The translations under genes and the position numbers were made by a program. Below the pieces are notes generated by a model. The model was not told the origin of the DNA and searched no databases. It was given only the letters and a program-made list of their open reading frames with translations. A stretch of 64,000 nucleotides of DNA from Bacillota bacterium (GTDB taxonomy: Bacteria > Bacillota > Clostridia > Ch29): contig JABVCK010000015.1 in assembly GCA_013540605.1 (NCBI GenBank), positions 1-64,000 on the forward strand, read 5' to 3'. This document shows, piece by piece, positions 142 to 8,032 of this stretch. Position 1 is the first letter of the stretch, and each line of letters starts with the position of its first letter.

Positions 142-1950
142 GTAACAGAATATAAGCTGCTACCAGCCAACTTATTGCCATTTAAAGGTAAAAAGACGAG
201 TTCCTAACATCATCAACTAAGATCAAACTGCTTTTCAGGTTGATAATACAGCCATTGCAAAAAACAGCACCCTAAAAAGGTAGCACTAAATAAGCCGTTA
301 ATAACCGGGTAAAAATTCACCCTAAATTTTGGTAGAACAACCTGTATTTAGCTTGAATTTACCAAAATCCAGGCCCGTCTTTGGATGAAGTCCTGGAACT
401 TGGCTTTGATGATGCCTACCACCTCCTTGAGCCAGTCGTTGGGTGCCAACTTTACGTGGCGATAGCGGCCATGACCTACGACATTACCTGGTACATTAAG
501 GACCAATCGTCTTAGGGAAGGAACCTCATACCGGGCAGCTTCTTGCGGGAGCAGGGCTAACCTAAACCAGTTGAGCAGGTTGTAAGCGATGATTTTAACC
601 CACATGAAAGCCTTGTTCCTTTGCATTTCGTGCTGGCTGGTCTGATCCAGCCCTAAACCTACTTTTAGTTCATCAATTTTGTTTTCGATATTGCAGCGTT
701 TGTTATACCAGTGCCACACTTCTTCGGGAGTTAAGTCTTCCATATTGGTCACGATAGCCTGGTACTCGTAAGTTTCAAGGTCAAGACAAAGTTGCTCTGA
801 ATCTTCTTTGGGTTTTTGCAGTTCCCGTATGAAAACAATCCTTCTGGCTCTTTCCCAACTGGGCAAGGGGACCCTGATTTCGGTTACGGCATAGGTTCCG
901 TCTAGCTGTTCCCATGTATCTTGTTCATTGAGATAGTGGATGATTTTCCACATTCCACTGGTCAGCTTGGCCTTGCAAACGTATTCGAGACTATTATCTT
1001 CCAGGTAGATAAAGTTCTTTTCGTCAAAGAAGCCTCTATCAATGCGGATTCCTTTAACCACTGTTTTTTGGGGATCGAGCTTTGATAACGTTTCTTTGAG
1101 AAAGTCCAAAAATCCACCGTTACTGGCTGTTTTGCCCCCGCAAAGGTCAGCGTTGACTAACTCACCAGTCTGAGAGATAAAACCAACTTTGACCTTGTAG
1201 GATGAACGCCCATGGTAGCGCGGGTTATACCCTACTTCAGACCCTTTCTGGTTACCAAAAACGGTAATTACGCTATCATCAAAATCAAGCCATACTTCCC
1301 GCGGGCCGTCTAAATCGGCCTTCAAGGACAGAATACTATCATTTACCTGGCGTAATTGTTCGATATTCTCCAAAGTAAGTTGAGACAGTAGATAACGAAG
1401 AGTGCGTTCGTCAGCTACCTTATCGATTTCCTTTAGGTTTTGGTAGCCGGGGTCATGTTTTAGAGCATCCATATGGGAGAACCTTAGAAGTCCAAGGGCT
1501 GCGCAGTCAATCATAATTTCCAAAAGTTCAGCAGCACTGTAGGTACAGTTATGATGTCTTTTAACCGTAAGATGTTTCTGTAGCATATCAGTAAAACCGA
1601 TGACTTGTTTTAGCGCCTCAAAAAGACCGAAGTTGCCGTAAGCAGTAACGGTGTTATTGTCAAAGGCAATTGGCAAATTGGTTTTAGCGGCTAACTTTTG
1701 CAATCTCTTCTGGGCTTTGCGAAGACGACGTTCTTGAGCACGTTTTTGCTGGCGAGTGATATTTTCCTGTTGATTATTGGTAAGTAACTGTGCTACCATA
1801 ATTCGGAGGACACCTTCCTTCGGATGGTTTTGTATGCTACTTTACCAATTCCCGATTCAGGACAGGTGTTCCTCTTTTTTTGCTAATTTTTTTGCATGAA
1901 TTTATGGTCTTAAGCCTTGCTATTAAAGGGTTTTTACAAGTTACTTACCG
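136..1950 (-). mobile_element. IS1380-family insertion sequence
   Basis: A single transposase gene is bounded by an 11-bp perfect inverted repeat: CGGTAAGTAAC at 136-146 and its complement at 1940-1950. The size (about 1.8 kb) fits the IS1380 family. I could not find a clean target duplication directly abutting these repeats. GATCT occurs at 1951-1955 next to the right end and at 125-129, six bases outside the left repeat, so the exact left boundary may lie a few bases outward. Confidence 0.75.
348..1799 (-). CDS. IS1380-family DDE transposase
   Basis: This 483-residue transposase catalyses cut-and-paste movement of the element. The basic, coiled N-terminus (residues 10-40, rich in Arg/Lys/Gln) is followed by a DDE core. 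The first acidic motif is LDFDDSVITVFG (about 171-182), followed by GYNPRYHGR, typical of IS1380. The second Asp is D254 in IRIDRG, and the Glu is E372 in the Y-x2-R-x3-E context (YNKRCNIENK). The length is normal for the family and the frame is intact, so the copy may still be active. It is transcribed from its own end, with the start ATG close to the right terminal repeat. Confidence 0.93.
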   Translation of the reverse strand: MVAQLLTNNQQENITRQQKRAQERRLRKAQKRLQKLAAKTNLPIAFDNNTVTAYGNFGLFEALKQVIGFTDMLQKHLTVKRHHNCTYSAAELLEIMIDCAALGLLRFSHMDALKHDPGYQNLKEIDKVADERTLRYLLSQLTLENIEQLRQVNDSILSLKADLDGPREVWLDFDDSVITVFGNQKGSEVGYNPRYHGRSSYKVKVGFISQTGELVNADLCGGKTASNGGFLDFLKETLSKLDPQKTVVKGIRIDRGFFDEKNFIYLEDNSLEYVCKAKLTSGMWKIIHYLNEQDTWEQLDGTYAVTEIRVPLPSWERARRIVFIRELQKPKEDSEQLCLDLETYEYQAIVTNMEDLTPEEVWHWYNKRCNIENKIDELKVGLGLDQTSQHEMQRNKAFMWVKIIAYNLLNWFRLALLPQEAARYEVPSLRRLVLNVPGNVVGHGRYRHVKLAPNDWLKEVVGIIKAKFQDFIQRRAWILVNSS

Positions 1951-4870: not shown

Positions 4871-5611
4871 TCACTGCCCCTTTTCAATTAGAAATCTCCA
4901 ATATCTCACGGGCAGGTTTCTCTTTTGCAGCTTGGGATTTACCCTGTCCTTTATTGCAATGCTTTTGAAATACTCCTTCCAGAGGCTTTGGTATAGCTTC
5001 TCGCCGTTGCTAAGCTCGATCTCATTTTCCAGATCCATATCCCCTAATGACCATGTTTCCCCATTGTAAAAAACTCCGATTTTCCTGTTCACATCGTGTA
5101 TTATCCAGTTTTGGCCGGGGAACCTGTCCAGAAAATGGGGTATGACTAATCCTACAATGTTGTATTGGGGTGAAATGGGGGCGTAGTAGATATTGCCCTC
5201 CAGGCACCTGAAACGTATCAGCCCCATCATTCGGTGCCTTTCCCCGTTGACCCTTTGACTAATCTTGTGCACCCTCAACACCCTGCCGTCTGAAAGCATC
5301 CGGTCAAATTCCTTTCCGATTTTCCATCCAAGCCTTAGGTACTCGTATATCCACGTACCCGCGTCAGGCAGCTCGGATAGATAGACATAGAATACATTCC
5401 TCAACGCCTGGCGGGATATTTTTGTTTGGATGGATACATATACCCTTTGGGATTGTTCCGTCTCGGTTCTTATGTATACTTTTTCTGCCAGCAGGCTCTC
5501 TTGAAAGTCCCCTGCCGCAACAATCCGGCTAGGGGTTTCCCCTCTGTAATAAGCCTGGTATATGGCAGTCAGAAGCCCGTCAAAGCTGCCGTCATAAAAA
5601 TAATAAAGCAT
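4871..5611 (-). CDS. TIGR03915-family DNA-metabolism protein (DUF4130)
   Basis: This 246-residue protein begins YYFYDGSFDGLLTAIYQAY, the hallmark opening of the family annotated as a probable DNA metabolism protein, which is found fused to a uracil-DNA-glycosylase-like domain in some bacteria. Here it stands alone without the glycosylase part. It is encoded directly after its usual partner, the radical SAM gene, with overlapping stop and start (TAATG), so the two are surely co-expressed. The C-terminal half (FRCLEGNIYYAPISPQYN, then FLDRFPGQNWIIHDVNR) is also typical. The biochemical activity is unknown. The shared promoter carries LexA-like boxes, supporting a role in DNA damage repair or nucleic-acid modification. 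Confidence 0.85.
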   Translation of the reverse strand: MLYYFYDGSFDGLLTAIYQAYYRGETPSRIVAAGDFQESLLAEKVYIRTETEQSQRVYVSIQTKISRQALRNVFYVYLSELPDAGTWIYEYLRLGWKIGKEFDRMLSDGRVLRVHKISQRVNGERHRMMGLIRFRCLEGNIYYAPISPQYNIVGLVIPHFLDRFPGQNWIIHDVNRKIGVFYNGETWSLGDMDLENEIELSNGEKLYQSLWKEYFKSIAIKDRVNPKLQKRNLPVRYWRFLIEKGQ

Positions 5612-6918
5612 TACAACTCCCCCGTTATACTGGATAGTTTATCTCCCGTTGATAAAAGATCCGGATAGAGAGAAAATAGGGATACCTGCTCACCGCTATC
5701 TAAACTGCGGGAATTCTTAGCATTTATAAGCAGCTGCTCCTTAATGGAATGCACATCCATATTTATTCCCCCGTAATATCTCCCTTTGCAGGTTATAAAG
5801 TACCTTGCCCTTTTCAGGACCACTCCCAGTTTATTCAGATCTGCGTAATCCAGAGAGCCGAACCGCCTGGATGCGATTATCCGTCTCGCTGATTTCACCC
5901 CTACTCCCGGAATGCGAAGCAGCAGTTCATAATCAGCGTAGTTTACTTCCACAGGAAACAGGTGGATATTTCTCAATGCCCAGTCACATTTGGGATCCAG
6001 GTCTATATCAAAGTTCTGGTGGGTTTCGTTCAGCAGTTCATGGGCATTGAACCCATAAAATCTCAGAAGCCAGTCGGCTTGATAGAGCCTGTGTTCTCTC
6101 ACAAGGGGCGGAGCAGAAATACTGGGAAGGTTCGGGTGACTCGATACGGGGACATAAGCCGAATAATAAACCCTTTTAAGGCTGAAGCGCTTATATAGGG
6201 CTTCTGAAAGTCTTAGGATGTTTGCATCGTTATCCGGCGTAGCCCCGACAATCAACTGGGTGGTCTGCCCTGCCGGCACGAAGTCAAAGGCCTTTTTATA
6301 CTTGCGTTTATCTTCGATCCCTTCAATAATCTTAGAACTGATAAAGCTCATAGGCCTGATTATGGTTTCCCTTTCCTTTTGGGGGGCCAGCAGTTTAAGG
6401 CTTCGCTCCGAAGGAAACTCAATATTAACGCTCATCCTGTCCACGTATTTGCCGGCCCGTTCTATAAGATAATTGTCTGCGCCGGGGATCGCCTTAAGAT
6501 GTATGTACCCGTTAAAATTCTCCTGCTCCCTCAGCTTTCTGACTGCCTCAAGCATCAGCTCCATGGTATAGTTTGGGTTTTTTAAAACTGCCGAGCTTAA
6601 GAAAAGCCCTTCAATATAGTTCCTTTTGTAAAAATTGATTGTTATATCGACAAGCTCATCAGGGGTAAACGTTGCTCTGGGCACAGCATTGGAAACCCTG
6701 TTAATGCAGTAAGTGCAGTCATATATGCAGTGATTGGTGAACAGAATCTTTAAAAGGGAGATGCACCTACCGTCATCCGCCCAGCTGTGACAGATACCGC
6801 TGTAGCAGCTATTGCCTAACCCGTCTTTTTTATTCTTTTTATTGCTGCCGCTCGACGAACACGATACATCGTATTTTGCCGCGTCGGCTAAAATTTTCAG
6901 TTTGTCTAAAAGTTCCAT
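5611..6918 (-). CDS. Putative DNA modification/repair radical SAM protein (TIGR03916 family)
   Basis: This 435-residue radical SAM enzyme carries the cluster motif C64-x3-C68-x2-C71 (CIYDCTYC). Extra cysteines at about 20, 38, 43 and 52 could bind a second cluster. The TIM-barrel region continues to about residue 270. A helix-hairpin-helix DNA-binding element (LLLRIPGVGVKSARRII) sits at about 345-362. The family always pairs with TIGR03915, as here. I placed the start at the ATG preceded by GGTGA, nine codons inside the longest frame. It is the first gene of a two-gene unit whose promoter overlaps two SOS-type boxes. The substrate is unknown. Confidence 0.88.
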   Translation of the reverse strand: MELLDKLKILADAAKYDVSCSSSGSNKKNKKDGLGNSCYSGICHSWADDGRCISLLKILFTNHCIYDCTYCINRVSNAVPRATFTPDELVDITINFYKRNYIEGLFLSSAVLKNPNYTMELMLEAVRKLREQENFNGYIHLKAIPGADNYLIERAGKYVDRMSVNIEFPSERSLKLLAPQKERETIIRPMSFISSKIIEGIEDKRKYKKAFDFVPAGQTTQLIVGATPDNDANILRLSEALYKRFSLKRVYYSAYVPVSSHPNLPSISAPPLVREHRLYQADWLLRFYGFNAHELLNETHQNFDIDLDPKCDWALRNIHLFPVEVNYADYELLLRIPGVGVKSARRIIASRRFGSLDYADLNKLGVVLKRARYFITCKGRYYGGINMDVHSIKEQLLINAKNSRSLDSGEQVSLFSLYPDLLSTGDKLSSITGEL

Positions 6919-6951
6919 CGCAATCACCATTCCATAGTTTGGCATGCAAAT

Positions 6952-7010
6952 ATTTTACCACAACCGCCATATTTATGCAAACATATGTTCTGAACATATG
7001 TTTGCATAAA
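6952..7010 (-). promoter_or_regulatory. Promoter with two LexA-like (SOS) boxes
   Basis: A promoter TTGCAT (6980-6975), 17-bp spacer, TAAAAT (6957-6952) precedes the radical SAM gene. A perfect inverted repeat with 19-bp arms (6972-6990 and 6992-7010) overlaps the -35. It contains two copies of GAACATATGTTTG, one on each strand (6978-6991 and 6991-7004). These match the Gram-positive LexA consensus CGAAC-N4-GTTYG except at the first base. Binding here would occlude RNA polymerase, so induction on DNA damage is expected. Confidence 0.75.
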
Positions 7011-7042
7011 TAAAAAGTACCCCCGATATGAGGATACCATTA

Positions 7043-7096
7043 GATCTTTCAAGTGGGACAGAAGAACCGTCCCCCTTGTCCCGTTTCCCCTTGTCC
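7043..7096. repeat. G/C-rich inverted repeat of the GGGAC type
   Basis: Repeated GGGACA / TGTCCC units (GTGGGACAGAAGAACCGTCC and two following TTGTCCC copies) lie at the end of the nucleoside permease gene. They could form a hairpin that ends transcription of the purine operon. The caps of the composite repeat family elsewhere in the window share only the GGGACA core. Confidence 0.4.
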
Positions 7097-7099
7097 CAG

Positions 7100-8032
7100 T
7101 TATCTGTCTTCGCGGTAATAGGGTTTTGTGAGCGATCCCGGTCCGCTCCATACGTACTTGCTCCTTCTGCTGGTTGAAATCACCAGGACAAGCACAGTAA
7201 AGAGATACGGAAGCATCTTAAGGAAGAAGGACGGCACCATTACGCCCAGGACCTGCAGCCTGAATCCGAGAATATCCAGACCCCCGAATATATATGAACC
7301 CAAAAGGGCCTTTAAGGGATCCCATGCCGCAAATATTACCAGCGCAACAGCGATCCAGCCTCTCCCGGCGGTCATATTCTCCAGCCACGATGGCGCATAG
7401 GCTAGGGATAGATATGCTCCTCCCAGGCCTGCCAGGGCACCGCCCAGAAACACGTGCAGGTACTGTGTCCTGAATACATTTATACCCGCCGCATCCGCAG
7501 CCGAGGGATTCTCACCCACTGCCTTAAGGTTAAGGCCCGGGCGGGTTCTGTTGATATAATACCAGATTACCGGTACAAGCAAAAAGCTGATGTACACCAT
7601 GGCATCGTGCCTGAAGAAAACCGGACCTAGAAACGGTAAATCCTTCAGCAGCGGTATACCTATCTTTACAAAAGGGGCCTTAAGAGAAACCCCAATGTAC
7701 CTTTTCCCCAAAAAACCGCTCAAACCGGTGCCAAAGATTGTCAAAGCCAATCCGCTTACTACCTGGCTGGACCGGAGAGATATGGCTAAAAACCCGTGAA
7801 TTAATGCCATTGTTCCCCCCGCCAGCATTGCTGAAATGAGTCCCAACCAGGGAGAGCCGGTAAGCACGGCGGTTGAAAAACCTGCCACGGCTCCAACCAG
7901 CATCATTCCTTCAACTCCCAGGTTCAAAACCCCTGCCCTTTCGGTCAGTATCTCTCCAAGCGCAGCAAAGAGGATTGGCGTTCCCGCTATTATTGTTGCA
8001 GAGAGTATCACAGTAATTGCAGAACTATTCAC
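7100..8032 (-). CDS. Nucleoside ABC transporter permease (second subunit)
   Basis: This 310-residue polytopic protein of the branched-chain-amino-acid/ribose-type permease family has eight or more hydrophobic segments. It carries the family signature GGVEGMMLVGA-like stretch (NLGVEGMMLVGAVAGF, about 37-52) and the cytoplasmic EAA-like region PSAADAAGINVFRTQ. With the BMP-type lipoprotein, it matches the guanosine/nucleoside importers of the NupNOPQ/BmpA kind. Its start overlaps the end of the first permease gene by 8 bp, and it is the last gene of the operon. Confidence 0.87.
   Translation of the reverse strand: MNSSAITVILSATIIAGTPILFAALGEILTERAGVLNLGVEGMMLVGAVAGFSTAVLTGSPWLGLISAMLAGGTMALIHGFLAISLRSSQVVSGLALTIFGTGLSGFLGKRYIGVSLKAPFVKIGIPLLKDLPFLGPVFFRHDAMVYISFLLVPVIWYYINRTRPGLNLKAVGENPSAADAAGINVFRTQYLHVFLGGALAGLGGAYLSLAYAPSWLENMTAGRGWIAVALVIFAAWDPLKALLGSYIFGGLDILGFRLQVLGVMVPSFFLKMLPYLFTVLVLVISTSRRSKYVWSGPGSLTKPYYREDR

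What the first reader, a model, noticed from the sequence alone, without database searches (positions are those of the whole stretch)
6952..7010. SOS-type boxes control the TIGR03915/TIGR03916 radical SAM pair
A perfect inverted repeat with 19-bp arms overlaps the -35 of the only plausible promoter of this operon. It holds two copies of GAACATATGTTTG, nearly the Gram-positive LexA consensus CGAAC-N4-GTTYG. The module's function is unknown; families fused to a uracil-DNA-glycosylase-like domain hint at repair. A LexA-type promoter would give direct regulatory evidence that this radical SAM enzyme and its partner act in the DNA-damage response.
Basis: partly seen in the sequence, partly recalled or inferred. 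Interest (0 to 1): 0.75.

Follow-up and report, generated by a model that had tools for sequence, protein, structure and literature searches.

The report
SOS-controlled radical SAM repair pair
Two binding sites for LexA, the repressor of the bacterial DNA-damage response, sit on the promoter of a poorly understood radical SAM enzyme and its partner; the same type of site precedes this gene pair across most of the bacterial phylum, so the pair very probably belongs to the DNA-damage response, as earlier papers had already predicted for related bacteria.

Summary
A perfect 39-bp palindrome (window 6972-7010, two 19-bp arms, one central base) holds two GAACATATGTTTG boxes on the promoter of a TIGR03916/TIGR03915 operon. 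In the same genome lexA has three such boxes, recA and uvrB one each, and the identical 13-mer also precedes recF and a Bro-N gene. A matrix built only from lexA promoters of 21 other genomes ranks the two window boxes first and second in the 64 kb (18.1 and 15.0 bits; next 10.3). A strict box lies within 250 nt upstream of TIGR03916 in 66 of 105 orthologues (reversed-pattern control 0; shuffles average 1.1) and in 42 of 56 families.

LexA control of this module is not new: it was predicted for Clostridium acetobutylicum CAC3343-CAC3344 in 2013 (PMC3828012), and SOS control of what is probably the same module (COG1573-COG4277) is reported for three other phyla/classes (PMC8565304). The additions here are phylum-wide evidence and a rare overlapping operator pair 13 bp apart. 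Co-regulation places the pair in the SOS response; its chemistry and substrate remain unknown. LexA binding and damage induction were not measured.

The parts
6972..7010 (.). perfect inverted repeat, 19-bp arms, 1-bp centre; composite operator
6978..6990 (-). proximal LexA box GAACATATGTTTG (one of the two best matrix scores in the window); overlaps the -35
6992..7004 (+). distal LexA box GAACATATGTTTG (the other of the two best matrix scores), 13 bp from the proximal box centre to centre
6975..6980 (-). -35-like hexamer TTGCAT, inside the right arm
6952..6957 (-). -10 TAAAAT with extended TG (17-bp spacer)
5611..6918 (-). TIGR03916 radical SAM + helix-hairpin-helix protein (likely start ATG 6918; longest ORF starts at 6945)
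4871..5611 (-). TIGR03915 / DUF4130 partner, directly abutting the radical SAM gene end (same operon)
7012..7038 (-). intrinsic terminator of the upstream ABC-transporter operon, separating it from this operon

Best explanation
The palindrome is a double LexA operator. In undamaged cells LexA dimers bind the proximal box, which overlaps the -35 element, and possibly the overlapping distal box, and so block RNA polymerase (inferred). After DNA damage, RecA filaments trigger LexA self-cleavage; the TIGR03916 radical SAM/HhH protein and its DUF4130 partner are then made together from one operon. The module is therefore part of the SOS response, most likely acting on damaged or modified DNA. Shown here: box identity, match to this genome's own SOS genes, conservation across the phylum, and promoter geometry. 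Inferred: LexA occupancy, induction, and the repair role.
For: In the same genome lexA (C1:329269) has boxes GAACGTTTGTTCG, GAACATTTGTTC and GAACATTTGTTTG upstream; recA has GAACGTTTGTTC 46 bp before its HMM start; uvrB has GAACATTTGTTCG over its start region; the exact 13-mer also precedes recF and a Bro-N gene. LexA is intact and canonical, with an AG cleavage site and the catalytic Ser and Lys (motif knowledge is general). A matrix from 45 lexA-promoter sites of 21 other genomes ranks the two boxes first and second in 64 kb. A strict box lies within 250 nt upstream of TIGR03916 in 66 of 105 phylum orthologues; reversed-pattern control 0 of 105; block-shuffled mean 1.06, maximum 4 in 200 runs; in-gene rate 0.004 per 250 bp. 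42 of 56 families have it, as do 58 of 80 named genomes. Combined, the matrix hits 143 of 185 promoters against 1.8% of shuffles. The pair is adjacent in 91 of 105 and 76 of 80 loci. Published prediction for C. acetobutylicum, with expression clustering.
Against: No binding or induction data for this organism. 39 of 105 orthologues lack a strict box, although several have one-mismatch boxes at the usual position, and in one genus without boxes the lexA promoter also lacks the box. The promoter hexamers alone are not above chance. Whether two LexA dimers can sit 13 bp apart is unknown.
Confidence: 0.93

Rival explanations
1. The palindrome is the operator of another dimeric repressor (for example an S24/XRE phage-type regulator) that happens to resemble the LexA box.
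For: Many genomes also hold LexA-like S24 repressors, and in G368 one lies directly upstream of TIGR03916. The arms extend 6 bp beyond each box.
Against: The box is of the same type as those on lexA, recA and uvrB, and identical to that on recF, of the same genome, and the matrix that finds it was trained only on lexA promoters.
Confidence: 0.04
2. The palindrome is a transcription terminator or RNA hairpin of the upstream ABC operon, or a repeat element.
For: As RNA it would form a strong hairpin (region z-score -6).
Against: It lacks a T-run on either strand; a proper terminator with a T-run lies just before it at 7038-7012. It lies upstream of the predicted transcription start. It is unique in the genome, and no Rfam family matches.
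Confidence: 0.02
3. Chance similarity to a LexA box without function.
For: GAAC-N4-GTTYG occurs 38 times in the genome, fewer than its reversed control (68), so one loose match means little.
Against: Two exact 13-mers arranged as a perfect palindrome on a promoter, top two of 64 kb, and conservation in 66 of 105 orthologous promoters.
Confidence: 0.01

Closest known systems
Predicted LexA control of CAC3343-CAC3344 in Clostridium acetobutylicum (PMC3828012)
   Different: Single-species prediction; an overlapping double operator is not described in the text read, and no orthologue was listed as LexA-controlled in RegPrecise at that time.
SOS-regulated COG1573-COG4277 operon in Bacteroidetes, Verrucomicrobia and Alphaproteobacteria (PMC8565304 and its references 7 and 65)
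   Same: Two-gene putative base-excision-repair module under LexA-type control. That COG4277 is the TIGR03916 family is from my own knowledge, not tested here.
   Different: Those modules carry a uracil-DNA-glycosylase part and different LexA motifs; here the DUF4130 partner stands alone and the best TIGR03914 hit elsewhere in the genome is below cut-off.
SplB (spore photoproduct lyase), a radical SAM DNA-repair enzyme under SOS control
   Same: Radical SAM enzyme linked to SOS and DNA repair (PMC3765255; PMC8565304).
   Different: TIGR03916 is a distinct family: it carries a helix-hairpin-helix region and a DUF4130 partner, and spore photoproduct lyase was not among the top 50 structural matches of its model.
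Bacillus-type SOS box (GAAC-N4-GTTC)
   Same: Core and symmetry; used by lexA, recA and uvrB here.
   Different: Two boxes overlap at 13-bp spacing with perfectly symmetric flanks.

Membership tests
LexA (SOS) regulon of Gram-positive type | GAAC-N4-GTTC-type box in the promoter | tested here: met
LexA (SOS) regulon of Gram-positive type | same box type on lexA and recA of the same genome | tested here: met
LexA (SOS) regulon of Gram-positive type | box conserved at orthologous promoters | tested here: met
   66/105 and 58/80 promoters
LexA (SOS) regulon of Gram-positive type | intact, cleavable LexA encoded in the genome | tested here: met
LexA (SOS) regulon of Gram-positive type | LexA binds the operator | not testable with these tools
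   needs EMSA or footprinting
LexA (SOS) regulon of Gram-positive type | RecA-dependent induction by DNA damage | not testable with these tools
   needs expression measurement
TIGR03916 / TIGR03915 module | both proteins above family cut-offs and adjacent on one strand | tested here: met
   663 vs 343.5 bits; 269 vs 112 bits
TIGR03916 / TIGR03915 module | radical SAM CX3CX2C cysteines | tested here: met
   C64, C68, C71 invariant in 39 sequences
UDG-fused form of the module (TIGR03914) | uracil-DNA-glycosylase-like domain fused to TIGR03915 | tested here: not met
   246-aa partner has only DUF4130

The most novel reading that the evidence does not exclude
The pair is a dedicated SOS-induced DNA-repair or DNA-modifying enzyme with radical chemistry distinct from spore photoproduct lyase, with the DUF4130 partner supplying a second activity; its weak structural likeness to DHH/RecJ phosphoesterases is a lead only. 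Overlapping LexA boxes would give it tight repression.
Probability: 0.3. Interest if true: 0.75.

Novelty: new member of a known kind. Interest (0 to 1): 0.4.

Why it matters
TIGR03916/TIGR03915 was above family cut-off in 91 of 398 sampled genomes of this phylum, yet its function is unknown. Phylum-wide LexA boxes (42 of 56 families) turn a few scattered predictions into a consistent rule. They make the module testable: induce with a DNA-damaging agent, delete, and look for the lesion that is no longer repaired.

Tried and rejected
Terminator or RNA element reading of the palindrome: rejected. Repeat element: rejected. Apparent N-terminal fusions of TIGR03916 in L056, L248 and L250: the extensions look like low-complexity or out-of-frame sequence by eye and were treated as spurious upstream ORFs; they were not scanned against a library. 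A first promoter scan ignored locus orientation and was redone. Search for an alternative shared box in the genus lacking GAAC boxes (f93) gave only GAAT-type variants (lexA GAATGTATGTTT, rSAM GAATATATATTC), suggestive but not tested statistically. Paper searches with the TIGR accessions returned nothing. The C. difficile LexA paper does not name this pair in its main text by the terms searched.

Full report
Observation. The + strand at 6972-7010 reads TTTATGCAAACATATGTTC T GAACATATGTTTGCATAAA, a perfect palindrome with 19-bp arms. It contains GAACATATGTTTG twice, on opposite strands (6978-6990 and 6992-7004); no other match exists in the window even with one mismatch, and shuffles give 0.07. 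The 37-bp core occurs once in the 3.35-Mb genome, allowing three mismatches, so it is not a repeat element.

Surroundings. The operon runs on the minus strand: TIGR03916 (663 bits) then TIGR03915 (269 bits). Pfam sees Radical_SAM plus weak helix-hairpin-helix matches in the first protein and DUF4130 in the second. The upstream ABC-transporter operon on the same strand ends with its own terminator at 7038-7012, followed by a T-run, so the pair needs its own promoter. The best candidate is TTGCAT (6980-6975), 17 bp, TAAAAT (6957-6952) with an extended TG. The hexamers alone are no better than chance. A start at 6945 would be leaderless; ATG 6918 after GGTGA agrees with the start offset common to orthologues. 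The proximal box overlaps the -35 by 2-3 bp.

Test in the same genome. lexA (C1:329269) has three boxes 150, 121 and 81 bp upstream of its HMM start: GAACGTTTGTTCG, GAACATTTGTTC, GAACATTTGTTTG. recA (C1:302655) has GAACGTTTGTTC 46 bp upstream. uvrB has GAACATTTGTTCG across its start region, and the exact 13-mer GAACATATGTTTG precedes recF and a Bro-N-domain gene. A box also lies before an SbcD-like gene whose family score is below cut-off. The genome's LexA is complete, with the Ala-Gly cleavage site and the Ser/Lys pair (motif recognition from general knowledge). Because the loose pattern GAAC-N4-GTTYG occurs 38 times in the genome and its reversed control 68 times, single loose matches carry no weight. 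I therefore built a matrix from 45 sites in lexA promoters of 21 other genomes only. It places the two window boxes first and second in 64 kb at 18.1 and 15.0 bits, with the next at 10.3; which box of the two scores higher depends on the strand read, because the outer base differs. recA, uvrB, recF and the Bro-N gene score 15.3, 19.5, 18.1 and 18.1.

Test across relatives. TIGR03916 was above cut-off in 91 of 398 sampled genomes of the phylum and 17 of 60 relatives. Of 105 orthologues with upstream sequence, 66 have a strict box within 250 nt; the reversed-pattern control has 0, block-shuffled sequences average 1.06 (maximum 4), and coding sequence has 0.004 per 250 bp. By family, 42 of 56 have it. 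In a second, named set (which may overlap the first in species), 58 of 80 have it. With the lexA matrix, 143 of the 185 promoters pass against 1.8% of shuffles. In 30 genomes with lexA promoter sequence, 17 have boxes on both genes, 5 on lexA only, 1 on TIGR03916 only and 7 on neither; 6 of those 7 belong to one genus, so these counts are not independent. In that genus both promoters carry GAAT-type variants instead, suggestive of a drifted box but not tested. The DUF4130 partner is adjacent in 91 of 105 and 76 of 80 loci.

Special feature. The two boxes lie 13 bp apart centre to centre and share the middle GTTC-N-GAAC. Among 185 promoters only this one and G427 show 13-bp spacing, with a 14-bp case in G437; spacings of 27-32 and 57-62 bp are commoner. 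The lexA promoter of G398, a member of the same family, also has a 13-bp pair. Simultaneous occupancy by two dimers is unproven.

What the pair may do. The first protein keeps the CX3CX2C cysteines and three further invariant cysteines, C20, C43 and C52, which could bind a second cluster (inference). Its model (mean pLDDT 83) resembles radical SAM cores such as HydE, PFL activase and lipoyl synthase. The DUF4130 model (pLDDT 92) has only weak matches, and most of the leading ones are DHH/RecJ phosphoesterases with TM-scores below 0.45; this is a lead, not an assignment. The partner is not fused to a UDG-like domain here.

Known or new. PMC3828012 predicted LexA control of CAC3343-CAC3344, the same pair type, in 2013. 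PMC8565304 reports SOS control of a COG1573-COG4277 module in Bacteroidetes and cites it for Verrucomicrobia and Alphaproteobacteria; that COG4277 equals TIGR03916 is my knowledge, not tested. PMC3765255 calls DUF4130 a predicted mutagenesis-related enzyme linked to SplB-like radical SAM proteins and uracil-DNA glycosylases. The finding is therefore a well-supported new member of a known regulatory kind, with phylum-wide evidence and an unusual operator layout as additions.

Noticed in passing
L125 (G368:C38): An S24/LexA-like repressor gene lies directly upstream (about 80 bp) of TIGR03916 on the same strand, which could be a local damage-responsive regulator of the pair.
   Followed up: partly
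window 4871-5611: The DUF4130 model's leading structural matches are mostly DHH/RecJ-type phosphoesterases in both the PDB and the viral library, but with TM-scores below 0.45.
   Followed up: partly
window 5611-6918: Three invariant cysteines (C20, C43, C52) precede the radical SAM CX3CX2C motif in all 39 aligned sequences; they might bind an auxiliary iron-sulfur cluster.
   Followed up: no
L046 (G000:C28:14746): The exact 13-mer GAACATATGTTTG precedes a small Bro-N-domain gene, a possible further SOS gene.
   Followed up: partly
L173-L177 and L179 (genus g140, family f93): lexA and TIGR03916 promoters both lack GAAC boxes but carry GAAT-type variants, suggesting a shifted LexA motif in this genus.
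   Followed up: partly
window 7050-7105: A GGGACAAGGGGGACGGTTCTTCTGTCCC-type element lies between the ABC operon and its terminator; it looks like a repeat element but was not searched.
   Followed up: no
window 348-1799: A 483-aa ORF that looks like a transposase; not checked against any library.
   Followed up: no
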